The notes under the pieces: model-generated
Database searches by the model: none
What the model saw: only the letters and a program-made list of their open reading frames with translations
Told to the model about the DNA's origin: nothing
Position numbers and translations under genes: made by a program
Source: Actinomadura sp. WMMA1423
GTDB taxonomy: Bacteria; Actinomycetota; Actinomycetes; Streptosporangiales; Streptosporangiaceae
Reading direction: 5' to 3'
Length of the DNA: 64,000 bases
NCBI RefSeq assembly: GCF_006547145.1
Contig: NZ_CP041244.1
Span: 6,510,001-6,574,000, forward strand
Shown here: positions 2,866 through 60,816 of the stretch, in pieces
How the letters are laid out: the number at the start of each line of letters is the position of its first letter
Position numbering within the stretch: position 1 is the first letter of the stretch

Positions 2866-3032
2866 GCTTTTCTCTCCTCCTTCGGGCCTGGCGGCCCTCC
2901 ATCGTCGAGAAACGCGGGCGATCGCTGGCATCGCTCCGGCTCGCCTTGCGGCTCGCTGCGCGATCAGGTTCTCGCTTCGCTCGCCCCTGCCTTCGGACGC
3001 GATCGCAGCCATTCAGGTTGTTGCGTGGTTGC
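2866..3032 (+). repeat. Dispersed structured repeat, copy A
   Basis: This is one of four near-identical copies in the window. It starts two bases after the response-regulator stop and fills the gap before the convergent MerR-type gene. An outer stem (2866-2874 with 2907-2915, 8 of 9 pairs) encloses TCCTCCTTC, an inner hairpin GGGCC-tggc-GGCCC (2884-2897) and TCCATCGTC. Three further short hairpin units follow, containing GCGAT/ATCGC, GCC/GGC and CAGGTT-like arms, then a shared GGACGCGATCGC box and a GTTG-rich tail. No terminal inverted repeats, no transposase and no evident target-site duplication are seen. Confidence 0.85.
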
Positions 3033-9160: not shown

Positions 9161-10156
9161 GTGGACGTCGACGCCTACGTGGCCGAGCACAACGCCGAAT
9201 GGGTGCGCCTCGAACGGCTCATCAACCGCGGCCGGAAGCTGACCGGCGCGGAAGCCGACGAGCTCGTCGACCTCTACCAGCGCACGGCGACGCACCTGTC
9301 GGTCGTGCGGTCCAGCTCGCCCGACCCGCAGCTCGTCGGGCGGCTGTCGTCGCTCGTGGCGCGCGGCAGGGCCTCGGTGGCCGGCGCGCAGGCGCCGCTC
9401 TGGCGCGATGTCACCCGCTTCGCGACCGTGTCGTTCCCTGCCGCCGCGTACCGGATGCGGTGGTGGTGGCTGGGCAACGCCGTCCTCGGCAACCTGGTGG
9501 CGCTCGCCCTGGCGATCTGGGTCGTGCACAGCCCCGAGGTGCAGTCCACCATCGGGACGCCGGACGAGATCCGCGAACTCGTCGAGCACGACTTCGCGAA
9601 CTACTACACCGAGCACTCGGCGTCGTCGTTCGCGTTCCAGGTGTGGGTCAACAACGCCTGGGTGTCGGCGACCGCGCTGATCTTCGGGATCCTGCTCGGC
9701 ATCCCGACCGTGTACGTCCTGCTGCTGAACCAGGTCAACCTCGGGATCAGCGGCGGGCTGATGTTCGCCTACGGCAAGGGCGCCGTGTTCTTCGGGCTGA
9801 TCCTCCCGCACGGCCTGCTGGAGCTGACCGCCGTCTACCTCGCCTGCGCCGGGGGCCTCAAGCTCGGCTGGACGATCATCGACCCGGGTCCGCGGAGCCG
9901 CGGCCAGGCCCTCGCCGAGGAGGGCCGCGCGGCCGTCAGCATCGCCATCGGCCTCGTCGGGGTGCTGTTCGTGTCCGGCCTCATCGAGGGGTTCGTGACC
10001 GGCTGGGTCCACATCACATGGCTGCGCATCGCGATCGGCGTCGTGGCCGAGGCCGCGTTCCTCGCCTACGTGATCGTCCTCGGCCGCCGCGCCGTCCGCC
10101 AAGGCGAGACCGGCGACAGCGACCTCCACCCAGACCTGGCCCCGGTGTCTGCTTAG
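9161..10156 (+). CDS. SpoIIM-like (stage II sporulation protein M, DUF95) membrane protein
   Basis: 331 residues from GTG. A cytoplasmic helical N-terminus (WVRLERLINRGRKLTGAEAD) precedes about six membrane segments from residue 104 onward, with the DUF95 pattern NNAWVSATALIFGILLGIPT and FFGLILPHGLLELTAVYLA. Homologues in Bacillus act in engulfment. In actinobacteria the family co-occurs with RDD and MoxR-DUF58 genes, and its role is undefined. Length fits the family. A copy of the dispersed structured repeat begins on the last base of its TAG stop. Confidence 0.88.
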   Translation: MDVDAYVAEHNAEWVRLERLINRGRKLTGAEADELVDLYQRTATHLSVVRSSSPDPQLVGRLSSLVARGRASVAGAQAPLWRDVTRFATVSFPAAAYRMRWWWLGNAVLGNLVALALAIWVVHSPEVQSTIGTPDEIRELVEHDFANYYTEHSASSFAFQVWVNNAWVSATALIFGILLGIPTVYVLLLNQVNLGISGGLMFAYGKGAVFFGLILPHGLLELTAVYLACAGGLKLGWTIIDPGPRSRGQALAEEGRAAVSIAIGLVGVLFVSGLIEGFVTGWVHITWLRIAIGVVAEAAFLAYVIVLGRRAVRQGETGDSDLHPDLAPVSA

Positions 10157-10321
10157 CTTTTCTCTCCTCCTTCGGGCCTGGCGGCCCTCCATCGTCGAGA
10201 AAAGCGGGCGATCGCTGGCATCGCTCCGTCTCGCCTGGCGGCTCGCTGCGCGATCAGGTTCTCGCAAGCTCGAACCTGCCTTCGGACGCGATCGCAACCA
10301 TTCAGGTTGTTGCGTGGTTGC
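10156..10321 (+). repeat. Dispersed structured repeat, copy B
   Basis: This is the closest match to copy A. Its outer stem is perfect, 9 of 9 pairs (10156-10164 with 10197-10205), enclosing TCCTCCTTC, GGGCC-tggc-GGCCC and TCCATCGTC. A later stem CAGGTTC / GAACCTG (near 10255-10278) is also perfect here, where copy A has two mismatches. It fills the gap between the SpoIIM-like gene and the convergent DUF58 gene, overlapping the stop codon of the former by one base. Confidence 0.87.
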
Positions 10322-21234: not shown

Positions 21235-21470
21235 TGGCACCCGCCCGGGTCCGTGGTTGCGCTGGATCGCAGTGCCCGTCAGGGGCATGGCAGACGATCC
21301 GGCTAGCCGATGCCAGGCGCAGGCGAAACGGCCCACGTAAGGCGACTTCTCGTCGACCGATCACGGTGCGCCTTAGAGGTAAGTCCTGCCCCGTCGGGGG
21401 ATCCGACATCCCCCGAACCGGGAGAAGGGCAGTAGTGGCGAGAGCGCCGCGAGCCCCTCAGCAGGCGGAT
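21235..21470 (+). ncRNA. Structured RNA candidate, probably the raiA motif, in the hpf leader
   Basis: A 653-base gap separates comF from hpf and holds no gene. Downstream of a good promoter the sequence is RNA-like. A CTGCCC / GGGCAG stem (near 21387 and 21435) encloses a strong CGGGGGAT-ccgac-ATCCCCCG hairpin. A GGCG-agag-CGCC hairpin follows at about 21440, and unpaired stretches such as GAGGTAAGTCC and GGCGAAACGG look like conserved loops. From family knowledge, the raiA RNA of Actinobacteria and Firmicutes is found upstream of RaiA/HPF genes and near comFC genes, which is exactly this setting. Boundaries are approximate, and I could not align it to the family model. The first part of the gap (20937-21197) shows nothing recognisable. 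Confidence 0.5.
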
Positions 21471-21589
21471 GTGGGGACGAAGACCAGGTCGGCCGGGCGG
21501 GTGCGACCCATTGTCCTGTGGTACCCGTCCGGGGCCGCCAGGGCCCCGGAGCGGACCAGAATCGCAACCGGGAGAAGGGGGGTCCCCGC

Positions 21590-44189: not shown

Positions 44190-45082
44190 TCGATTGCGAG
44201 CTCCCCACGGAGGGACGGAACCCCCGGACCCTCGACGTCGACACGCTGCCGACCCTGGAGGTGCTACGCCTGATCAATTCTGAGGACGCGACCGTGCCGA
44301 GGGTCGTCGGCGCCGTCCTGCCCGAGGTCGCCCGGCTGGTCGACCTCGCCGTGGAGTCGCTGCGCGCGGGCGGCCGCGTGCACTACTTCGGGGCGGGCAC
44401 GTCCGGCCGGCTCGCGGTGCTGGACGCCGCCGAACTCCCCCCGACGTTCGGCATCTGGGGCCGGGTCGTGGCGCACCACGCCGGCGGCCCCGGCGCGCTG
44501 TCGCAGGCCGTCTCCGACGTGGAGGACGACACCGAACTCGGCCGCCGGGACGCCCTCGACGTCGCGCCGGGCGACGTCGCGATCGGCATCGCGGCGAGCG
44601 GCCGCACCCCGTACGTGGTGGGGGCGCTGCGCGCCGCCGCCGAGGTCGGGGCGCGCACCGCGCTGATCAGCTGCAACCCGCACACGCCCTACGGGGCCGA
44701 GGTGGAGGTGCACATCGGGCTCGCCACCGGGCCCGAGGTGATCAGCGGGTCCACCCGGATGAAGGCGGGCACCGCGACCAAGCTGGTGCTCAACTCCTTC
44801 TCCACCACGCTGATGATCAGGATGGGGCGCACCTACTCCAACCTGATGGTCAGCGTGAACGCGCTGAACTCCAAGCTGCGGGCCCGGCTGGTGCGCATCC
44901 TCACCGAGGCGACCGGAATGGACGCCCGCACCTGCGAGAACGCGCTGTCCGAGGCGGGCGGCAACACGCGCGTCGCACTGGTCTCGCTCCTCGGCGAGGT
45001 CCCCGCGTCCCGCGCCACGATGGTCCTGGAGGAAACAGACGGCGGCGTAAGAGAAGCGCTGCAGAGGCTTAGATCGGCGTAG
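44186..45082 (+). CDS. murQ: N-acetylmuramic acid 6-phosphate etherase
   Basis: 298 residues from GTG, overlapping the regulator's stop (GTGA). MurQ cleaves the lactyl ether of MurNAc-6-P to give GlcNAc-6-P and lactate, which nagA can use. Signature segments: VHYFGAGTSGRLAVLDAAEL, SQAVSDVEDD, AIGIAASGRTPYVVGAL and VISGSTRMKAGTATKLVLN. Length is normal. A small hairpin (45091-45111) and repeat copy C follow. Confidence 0.96.
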   Translation: MIDCELPTEGRNPRTLDVDTLPTLEVLRLINSEDATVPRVVGAVLPEVARLVDLAVESLRAGGRVHYFGAGTSGRLAVLDAAELPPTFGIWGRVVAHHAGGPGALSQAVSDVEDDTELGRRDALDVAPGDVAIGIAASGRTPYVVGALRAAAEVGARTALISCNPHTPYGAEVEVHIGLATGPEVISGSTRMKAGTATKLVLNSFSTTLMIRMGRTYSNLMVSVNALNSKLRARLVRILTEATGMDARTCENALSEAGGNTRVALVSLLGEVPASRATMVLEETDGGVREALQRLRSA

Positions 45083-45090
45083 CAGGGACC

Positions 45091-45111
45091 CGCAACGACC
45101 TCACCGTTGCG
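45091..45111 (+). terminator. Small hairpin after murQ
   Basis: CGCAACG / CGTTGCG, a perfect 7-bp stem with a 7-base loop 9 bases after the stop. It is weak and lacks a T-run. Confidence 0.4.
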
Positions 45112-45154
45112 CCCTCACCTAAAGCTCGCGATCGCGACAACACCAGCCGCCGCC

Positions 45155-45319
45155 GCAACCAGCGACGACCTCAACACTCGCGATCGCGTCCGAAGGCAGG
45201 TTCGAGCGAAGCAAGAATCTGATCGCGCAGCGAGCCGCAAGGCGAGACGGAGCGATGCCAGCGATCGCCGCAGTGCCCGACGATGGAGGGCCCCCGGGCC
45301 CGAAGGAGGAGGGCACTGC
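45155..45319 (-). repeat. Dispersed structured repeat, copy C
   Basis: Copy C is read on the minus strand. Its outer stem is GCAGTGCCC / GGGCACTGC (45311-45319 with 45270-45278), perfect but wholly different in sequence from copies A, B and D at five paired positions. The inner TCCTCCTTC, GGGCC-cggg-GGCCC and TCCATCGTC are unchanged. The downstream units with GCGATCGC boxes are conserved. It lies between murQ and the convergent acyl-CoA dehydrogenase gene. Confidence 0.85.
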
Positions 45320-45330
45320 AATAGGCACAG

Positions 45331-45369
45331 CAGGGCCTTCAAGGCCCGAGGGAGGAGAGAAATGCAATA
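45331..45369 (-). repeat. Partial duplicate of the repeat's leading hairpin beside copy C
   Basis: On the minus strand this reads TATTGCATTTCTCTCCTCC then CTCGGGCCTTGAAGGCCCTG: the same CTCCTCC box and a GGGCC/GGCCC hairpin as the leading unit of the full element. The closing right arm and TCCATCGTC are missing. It begins 6 bases after the acyl-CoA dehydrogenase stop, directly upstream (in element orientation) of the full copy. Confidence 0.65.
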
Positions 45370-45375
45370 AACACG

Positions 45376-46581
45376 TCAGTTTTCGTACTTGCATAGTTCC
45401 TGGCGGGCCACGGTGCGGATGTGGACCTCGTCGGGGCCGTCGAAGATGCGCATGGCGCGGACCCAGGAGTACATCGCGGCCAGCGGGGTGTCGTCGGAGA
45501 CGCCGGCGGCGCCGTGCACCTGGATCGCCCGGTCGAGCACCTCGTGCGTGATACGGGGCACGACCACCTTGATCGCGGCGATCTCCGTCCGCGCGCCCCT
45601 CGCGCCGTGCCTGTCGATCAGCCAGGCGGTCTTGAGGGTCAGCAGCCGCGCCTGCTCGATCGCCATGCGCGACTCGGCGATCTGCTCGCGGACGACGCCC
45701 TGCTTCGCCAGCGGGCCGCCGAAGGCCTCGCGGGAGAGGGCGCGGCGGCACATGAGCTCCAGCGCCCGCTCCGCCATGCCGAGCGCGCGCATGCAGTGGT
45801 GGATGCGGCCGGGCCCGAGCCGCGCCTGCGCGATCATGAACCCGTCGCCCTCGGCCGCGAGGAGGTGGGAGGCCGGCACCCGGACGTCCTCGAAGACGAT
45901 CTCCGAGTGGCCGTGCTGGTCCTGGTAGCCGAACACGGGCAGGTGCCGGACGACCCGCACGCCCGGCGCGTCGCGCGGCACGAGCACCTGCGACTGCTGC
46001 CGGTGCGCCGGGCCGTCCGGGTCGGTCTTGCCCATGACGATGAAGATCTTGCAGCGCTCGTCGGCGGCACCGGTGATGAACCACTTGCGGCCGTTGATCA
46101 CGTACTCGTCGCCGTCCCGGACGATCGAGGTGGTGATGTTGGTGGCGTCGGACGAGGCGACCTCGGGCTCGGTCATCGCGAACGCGCTGCGGATCTCCCC
46201 GTCCAGCAGGGGCCTGAGCCAGCGCTCCTTCTGCTCGTCCGTCCCGAACATGTGCAGGACTTCCATGTTCCCGGTGTCGGGCGCCGCGCAGTTGACCGCC
46301 TCGGGGGCGAGGTCCGGCGATCGTCCGGTCAGCTCGGCGAGCGTCGCGTAGTCCAGGTTCGACAGCCCGGACACGTCCGGCAGGAACAGGTTCCACAGGC
46401 CGCGCTCGCGCGCCTCGGCCTTCAGCTCCTCGACGACCGGCGGCAGCGCGTGCGGGTCGTTCTCCGCCCGCCAGGCGGCGTAGACGGCCTCGGCCGGGTA
46501 GACGCGCGCGTCCATGAACTCCTGGAGGCGGTCCCGGTAGTCGCGTGCCTTCGGGCTGGGTTCGAAGTCCATGAGCGGCAT
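45376..46581 (-). CDS. Acyl-CoA dehydrogenase (ACAD11-like)
   Basis: 401 residues from ATG; a second ATG three codons in is possible. FAD-dependent acyl-CoA dehydrogenase fold: FAMTEPEVASSDATNITTSI for FAD and substrate contact, INGRKWFITGA, GPGRIHHCMRALGMAERALE and the C-terminal QVHGAAGVSDDTPLAAMYSW. Residues resemble the ACAD10/11 and FadE subgroup that handles long-chain or 4-hydroxy acyl-CoA. A HAD protein is divergently encoded 52 bases away, echoing the HAD-kinase-ACAD fusion of human ACAD10; no kinase gene is present here. The substrate is not determinable. Confidence 0.9.
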   Translation of the reverse strand: MPLMDFEPSPKARDYRDRLQEFMDARVYPAEAVYAAWRAENDPHALPPVVEELKAEARERGLWNLFLPDVSGLSNLDYATLAELTGRSPDLAPEAVNCAAPDTGNMEVLHMFGTDEQKERWLRPLLDGEIRSAFAMTEPEVASSDATNITTSIVRDGDEYVINGRKWFITGAADERCKIFIVMGKTDPDGPAHRQQSQVLVPRDAPGVRVVRHLPVFGYQDQHGHSEIVFEDVRVPASHLLAAEGDGFMIAQARLGPGRIHHCMRALGMAERALELMCRRALSREAFGGPLAKQGVVREQIAESRMAIEQARLLTLKTAWLIDRHGARGARTEIAAIKVVVPRITHEVLDRAIQVHGAAGVSDDTPLAAMYSWVRAMRIFDGPDEVHIRTVARQELCKYEN

Positions 46582-60648: not shown

Positions 60649-60816
60649 GCAACCCCGCAACGACCCCAATGGTTGCGATCGCGTCCGAAGGCAGTTTCGA
60701 GCGAAGCAAGAAACTGATCGCGAAGCGAGCCGCCAAGGCGAGCCGGAGCGATGCCAGCGATCGCCCGCTTTTTCCGACGATGGAGGGCCGCAAGGCCCGA
60801 AGGAGGAGAAAAAAGC
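60649..60816 (-). repeat. Dispersed structured repeat, copy D
   Basis: Read on the minus strand. The outer stem is GCTTTTTTC / GGAAAAAGC (60808-60816 with 60767-60775), nine pairs including one G-T wobble. Inner boxes TCCTCCTTC, GGGCC-ttgc-GGCCC and TCCATCGTC are identical to the other copies. The later stem CAGTTTC / GAAACTG is perfect and differs from copy B's CAGGTTC / GAACCTG by a compensatory pair. It sits between the glutamate dehydrogenase gene and the terminator of the convergent lipoprotein gene. Confidence 0.86.

What the first reader, a model, noticed from the sequence alone, without database searches (positions are those of the whole stretch)
45270..45319. Compensatory base changes in the leading hairpin of the repeat family
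The outer stem is gcttttctc/gagaaaagc in copy B, gcagtgccc/gggcactgc in C and gctttttttc-like (GCTTTTTTC/GGAAAAAGC) in D. Pairing is kept while paired columns 3, 4, 6, 7 and 8 change on both sides. The enclosed boxes TCCTCCTTC and TCCATCGTC and the GGGCC/GGCCC inner stem are identical in all copies, while the 4-base apical loop varies (tggc, cggg, ttgc). Variable paired stem plus fixed internal loops is the pattern of a functional RNA, or of single-stranded DNA recognised by a protein.
Basis: seen in the sequence. Interest (0 to 1): 0.8.

Follow-up and report, generated by a model that had tools for sequence, protein, structure and literature searches.

The report
Mobile folded repeat beside stop codons
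The paired base changes are real: the hairpin is the end piece of a folded repeat of about 140 letters that has spread through many Actinomadura genomes, often sits right behind the stop codon of a gene, and keeps its fold while its letters change.

Summary
Confirmed and enlarged. The hairpin at 45270-45319 is one end of a ~140-nt structured repeat: the hairpin plus a multibranched second domain closed by GCGATCGC/GCGATCGC. A covariance model finds 55 copies in this genome. In an order-wide sample it hits 25 of 249 genomes, all of one genus, none in 55 other genera; the 101 named stretches are all Actinomadura. Covariation holds on 46 copies; a harsh tree-aware null on 173 copies leaves four significant pairs, all structural. 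At 8 sites shared by two species, 6 pairs changed Watson-Crick to Watson-Crick, against 0.5 expected: pairing is kept in place after insertion. The 'fixed' boxes are fixed in one subfamily only. The complement of the written strand folds better in 223 of 227 copies. Of 133 copies whose upstream gene could be read, 113 face its 3' end, 67 of them with the stop codon within 15 nt. One 7-nt gap between convergent stop codons carries the element in both orientations in different species. Best reading: a REP-like mobile repeat acting as a structured transcript 3' end, mover unknown. Hairpin-templated repair is a live rival.

The parts
45270..45319 (-). Copy C, hairpin I: 9-bp variable stem GCAGTGCCC/GGGCACTGC, boxes TCCTCCTTC and TCCATCGTC, inner stem GGGCC/GGCCC, loop CGGG
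45180..45319 (-).
   Evidence: covariance model hit G000:6555180-6555319; fold -68.2 kcal/mol, z -3.56 on window +
45320..45374 (-). Leader and half hairpin before copy C (GTGTTTATTGCATTTCTC TCCTCCCTC GGGCC TTGA AGGCCC, then TGCTGTGCCTATT): composite form
   Evidence: by eye
45376..45378 (-). Stop codon TGA of the acyl-CoA dehydrogenase gene (45376-46572 -), just before the composite element
45080..45082 (+). Stop codon TAG of the convergent SIS-domain gene on the other side of copy C (murQ-type by recall)
2866..3006 (+). Copy A, structured core; hairpin I 2866-2915; TAA stop of the response-regulator gene begins 5 nt before the stem; convergent MerR-type gene follows
10156..10295 (+). Copy B, structured core; hairpin I 10156-10205; upstream TAG stop overlaps the first stem base
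60675..60816 (-). Copy D, structured core; hairpin I 60767-60816

Best explanation
A mobile, structured intergenic repeat of the genus Actinomadura, working like REP/BIME elements. INFERRED: each copy is kept folded because it serves as a transcript 3' end between convergent or serial genes (ending or trimming transcripts, guarding 3' ends, or slowing ribosomes at the stop codon), and the family spreads through an enzyme acting in trans that I did not find.
For: Covariation. In-place compensation at 8 orthologous junctions: 6 Watson-Crick double changes in 72 column pairs against 0.51 expected, Poisson P 1.6e-5; a looser junction rule gives 13 of 108 against 1.7, but that set counts one site twice and holds doubtful pairings. 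Placement: of 204 copies examined, upstream coding frame confident in 133, 3' end facing in 113, stop codon start 1-15 nt before the stem in 67 of those 113; downstream frame confident in 95, 3' end facing in 71; of 70 with both, 43 convergent and 3 divergent (copies shared by descent among species are not independent). Occupied and empty sites across species. Strand: complement lower in energy in 223 of 227, closing helix in the MFE of 211 versus 110. A.C outnumbers G.T 76 to 24 in 131 distinct outer stems, i.e. G.U on the complement.
Against: No transcript data. No intrinsic-terminator-like site at copy C. Over all helices G.T and A.C are about even (76 vs 82), though 47 of the G.T cells sit in two doubtful pairs, at least one of which I judge to be an alignment artefact. 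No mover found: G005 (56 exact cores) has no PF01797 match, and G000, G005, G065 and G080 have no RVT_1 match. Location at 3' ends can partly reflect purging of insertions elsewhere. Element identity between orthologous sites (0.80-0.88 at most of the paired sites) is often no higher than to other copies, so conversion or re-insertion at some sites is possible.
Confidence: 0.5

Rival explanations
1. Neutral repeat whose stems are kept perfect by hairpin-templated DNA repair (template switching copies one arm from the other), not by selection for function.
For: The mechanism is proposed for RNA hairpins (PMC8794818, abstract and start of the introduction seen). At site C the whole 3' arm differs in step with the 5' arm between G080 and G000/G005/G237 (by eye). 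Outer stem pairs change fast in orthologs.
Against: It should also turn the 9x9 internal loop into a perfect stem; 0 such hairpins against 244 normal ones in the 355 loci held. It does not explain strict conservation of the boxes within a subfamily or the strand asymmetry in folding. The two are not exclusive.
Confidence: 0.25
2. The hairpin is a transposition signal recognised as single-stranded DNA (HUH/REP-like), so only active source copies need it folded; it has no cis role.
For: Repeat-within-repeat insertions with a constant leader TGCTGTG..TATTGC (by eye); dispersed copies; REPs are reported to keep complementary mutations (PMC2817692, passages read).
Against: Compensation is seen in place at shared sites. 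No PF01797 transposase in G005; the three PF01797 loci of G000 (L313-L315) have no element in the 7-8 kb held. The REP head GT(A/G)G does not directly precede the stem.
Confidence: 0.15
3. An independent regulatory small RNA family, transcribed from its own promoters in many copies and acting in trans.
For: Stable two-domain fold with conserved unpaired segments.
Against: No promoter-like site near copy C (such scans are weak in this group); frequent coupling to stop codons suggests a cis role.
Confidence: 0.1

Closest known systems
REP/BIME elements with RAYT transposases (PMC2817692, passages read)
   Same: Many extragenic copies, imperfect palindrome, changes that keep pairing, composites
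   Different: Much larger multibranched core, no GT(A/G)G head directly before the stem, no cognate PF01797 gene in a copy-rich genome, found in one genus here
E. coli REPs within 15 nt of a stop codon, reported to stall ribosomes (PMC12306157, passages read, which cites earlier work)
   Same: Hairpin right behind the stop codon
   Different: There 446 of 4,072 predicted REPs lie that close; here 67 of 113 copies with a facing upstream gene do; ribosome stalling not tested
Stem-loop repeat families of bacteria (PMC2267715, abstract and outline seen), incl. MITE-like Correia and RUP (named in a passage) and ERIC and NEMIS (recalled)
   Same: Short dispersed intergenic folded repeats without genes
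   Different: No terminal inverted repeats seen; two-domain fold with strong covariation
Rfam release 15 structured RNAs
   Same: Covarying stems with conserved loops
   Different: No family matched copy B below E 1 (one chance-level hit, AS1726, E 1.4, 17 bits)

Membership tests
REP/RAYT | Short extragenic palindrome in many copies | tested here: met
REP/RAYT | GT(A/G)G head directly before the palindrome | tested here: not met
   Commonest bases before the stem read GTGTTTATT (237 copies)
REP/RAYT | Cognate Y1 transposase (PF01797) gene flanked by the repeats | tested here: not met
   None in G005; no element at E<=1 in the 7-8 kb held around the three G000 genes; at 4 loci of other genomes only one chance-level hit, E 0.16
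MITE | Terminal inverted repeats and target duplication | tested here: inconclusive
   None seen by eye in 11 aligned site comparisons or in the 5' profile; species too far apart for exact ends
Group II intron or other retroelement derivative | Reverse transcriptase in the genome | tested here: not met
   No RVT_1 match in G000, G005, G065, G080, though 8 of the 18 genomes searched have one; an extinct source is not excluded
IS91-like HUH elements | Y2 transposase (PF04986) | tested here: inconclusive
   0 of 18 genomes, but the control rang nowhere either
Intrinsic terminator | GC hairpin followed by a T run | tested here: not met
   0 sites at 45000-45480; other terminator types not testable
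Known Rfam family | Score above gathering threshold | tested here: not met
   Only raiA elsewhere in the window; copy B alone

The most novel reading that the evidence does not exclude
A new class of mobile structured RNA: the element moves by a mechanism that targets gene 3' ends at the stop codon, needs the folded molecule, and each landed copy becomes a working transcript end, so selfish spread and host function rest on the same fold. Its internal loop may be a continuous purine helix of three tandem G.A motifs on the active strand.
Probability: 0.2. Interest if true: 0.85.

Novelty: new variant of a known kind. Interest (0 to 1): 0.58.

Why it matters
A repeat with ~55 copies in one genome, occupied and empty sites across species, and compensation visible at single shared sites gives a natural experiment on a long-standing question: are compensatory changes in hairpins made by selection for folding or by hairpin-templated mutation? 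It also supplies candidate 3'-end elements for GC-rich actinobacteria, where classical terminators are often lacking (recalled).

Tried and rejected
Literature: six searches looked for this family or its kind and two for mechanisms; none listed a description of it; listings with abstract starts only, apart from the four papers opened. Plasmids and phages (copy B as query) and viral contigs (exact core) gave no match. Simple hairpins with the GCAGTGCC stem but without boxes are rare: 3 of 10 genomes, one each, no more than the reversed control gives, so the outer stem is not a borrowed generic terminator. A kink-turn reading of the boxes was considered and dropped (no matching C-helix, reasoning only). 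Bridge RNA, attC and IS200/605 readings were considered and dropped: boxes constant and stem variable within a subfamily, and no element near the TnpA/TnpB pair in L313. Empty sites were too diverged to show a target duplication. The first crude gene-orientation script called 65 of 181 upstream frames antisense and was replaced by the codon model; its near-stop count (52 of 116 same-strand calls) points the same way. Results against me: 34 of 38 structural pairs below significance, the G.T/A.C balance over all helices, ortholog identity, no mover.

Full report
Observation. The hairpin and its variants in copies B, C and D are as described.

Extent. Copies align beyond the hairpin. The conserved core is ~140 nt: hairpin I; then a domain closed by GCGATCGC/GCGATCGC, which switches as a pair to GCGATTGC/GCAATCGC in 3 of 46 aligned copies; an inner hairpin AGGTT..AACCT that also switches in pairs; a helix ATCGC/GCGAT; and a small hairpin CC-TTC-GG switching to GC-TTC-GC. 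A less conserved 5' leader (GTGTTTATT, or TGCTGTGYYTATT before GCAGTGC stems) and a 3' tail bring it to roughly 190 nt (by eye).

Distribution. Own genome: 44 exact cores, 55 model hits. Order-wide sample with the model: 25 of 249 genomes, all in the window's genus, none in 55 other genera; this search used stricter filters and scored at most 13 candidates a genome, so weak relatives may be missed and per-genome counts are lower bounds. No match in viral contigs (exact core), plasmids or phages (copy B).

Statistics. 46 diverse copies: 95.7% of cells paired, 15 of 40 pairs changed on both sides, score 0.178 vs 0.068 shuffled, 0 of 500. These shuffles ignore kinship, so I ran a tree-aware null of my own (FastTree, Fitch, substitutions re-placed along branches with column rates kept, 200 nulls) on 173 copies, kept from 191 by having a single core and the distal box. 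Four pairs have E<0.05, all in the structure; the six top pairs are structural; the 7th to 9th are not; 34 of 38 structural pairs do not pass. Two genomes, G000 and G005, were compared site by site. Of 43 distinct G000 copies 31 could be placed in the G005 stretches held, and 36 of 56 the other way. At the 8 strict orthologous junctions (flanks 82-96% identical) 58 of 72 column pairs are unchanged, 7 changed on one side, 6 Watson-Crick on both sides, 1 otherwise on both; 0.51 doubles expected. Pairing is therefore kept after insertion, not only in source copies, unless conversion replaced the copies.

Subfamilies. In part of the genus the boxes are different (TTGG.CGTC or TGCGGCGTC with TCCTTCAAC, TCCTTCGGC, TCCTTCTCC), and the inner stem varies in pairs (GGGCC/GGCCC, AGGCC/GGCCT, AGGCG/CGCCT, GGGCG/CGCCC, 15 genomes, 19 matches). 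Within the first subfamily 244 of 262 hairpins have GGGCC/GGCCC, 9 GGGCG/CGCCC and 6 GGCCC/GGGCC. In most of those shown TC precedes and TCC follows the inner stem, that is GA..GA on the complement.

Strand. On the complement the MFE is lower in 223 of 227 copies, by 7.6 kcal/mol on average (1.5 in 100 shuffled controls), and holds the closing helix in 211 against 110. For copy C the complement's MFE reproduces most of the consensus fold, z -3.56; for copy D the two strands are nearly equal. In 131 distinct outer stems A.C outnumbers G.T 76 to 24, i.e. G.U on the complement. Over all helices the balance is even, 82 to 76, with two doubtful pairs giving 47 of the 76 G.T cells. On the complement the boxes read GACGAUGGA and GAAGGAGGA, which can pair throughout as three tandem G.A motifs with a C-G, a U.G and one further G.A (my reasoning; not modelled by the folding program).

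Place in the genome. With a codon model trained on 26 window ORFs, 204 copies were examined: upstream gene confident in 133, 3' end facing in 113. The stop codon starts 1-15 nt before the stem in 67 of these 113, 45-60 nt before in 19 (several of them composite copies), 16-44 nt before in 10, inside the hairpin in 3, and 14 were not resolved. Downstream gene confident in 95, 3' end facing in 71. Both confident in 70: 43 convergent, 17 same direction as the element, 7 opposite, 3 divergent. Copies from different species at one site are not independent. Around copies A and C the genes are a LuxR-type response regulator facing a MerR-type regulator, and an acyl-CoA dehydrogenase facing a SIS-domain protein.

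Site histories. Site A (copy A): 25 of 30 loci held were printed; element in G000 (+), G005 (-) and G080 (-), also by model; G237 and G079 have only 7 nt between the two stop codons. The opposite orientations mean at least two insertions, or an inversion in place; the different stems of G005 and G080 allow a third. G204 and G021 hold a different insert there with similar motifs (noticed in passing). Site B: 26 of 30 printed; model hits in 7 of 30 loci (G000, G065, G005, G080, G292, G013, and G020 in opposite orientation), one weak hit in G067, and a truncated copy by eye in G079. Site C, the finding's own: model hits in 5 of 30 loci (G000, G005, G237, G080 in one orientation, G065 in the other) and weak hits in G079 and G064. 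By eye in 22 printed loci: composite copies in G000, G005, G237; a single copy in G080 sharing leader and tail with G005 but with another 3' arm, which fits its own 5' arm in 7 of 9 columns; a remnant in G079.

Mechanism. The fold is maintained and the seat is the gene 3' end. The simplest working idea is a REP-like mobile repeat that becomes a structured transcript end. Termination, 3'-end protection and effects on ribosomes at the stop codon are all open. No mover is identified: Y1 transposases occur in 17 of 60 genus genomes but not in copy-rich G005; no reverse-transcriptase match in G000, G005, G065 or G080; the Y2 search is uninformative.

Rival. Template switching can create and mend hairpins (PMC8794818, abstract). 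Against it as sole cause, no hairpin with complementary boxes was found in 2.0 Mb of held loci, against 244 normal ones. The joint arm difference at site C fits it well.

Noticed in passing
window 21240-21501 +: raiA RNA (RF03072), 142 bits, with a 43-nt insert in its 5' part.
   Followed up: partly
L331, L332, L334, L335, L338, L339 (site C in other species): A second hairpin at the same gene 3' end: stem like CCGTGRTCATGCGATCG with loop GTGCGGGGA; L337 has GTACGGGGA, L351 a similar stem with another loop, and L346 and L352 other stems with the same loop, suggesting another covarying repeat family (by eye).
   Followed up: no
L266 and L272 (site A in G204 and G021): A different insert between the same two genes, with GCTGTG..TATTGCAG- or GCTGTGCTTACGCAG-like leaders and CTCGCC..GGCGGCTCGCT motifs but no model hit: perhaps a sister repeat family.
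   Followed up: no
L313 3483-5075: IS200/IS605-type TnpA and TnpB pair in the window's genome with no copy of the element nearby (TnpB name recalled).
   Followed up: partly
L002, L010, L038, L069, L075: Elements nested in or next to truncated elements, each new copy starting with the same leader TGCTGTG/TGTG..TATTGC; hints at a separate mobility of hairpin I with its leader.
   Followed up: partly
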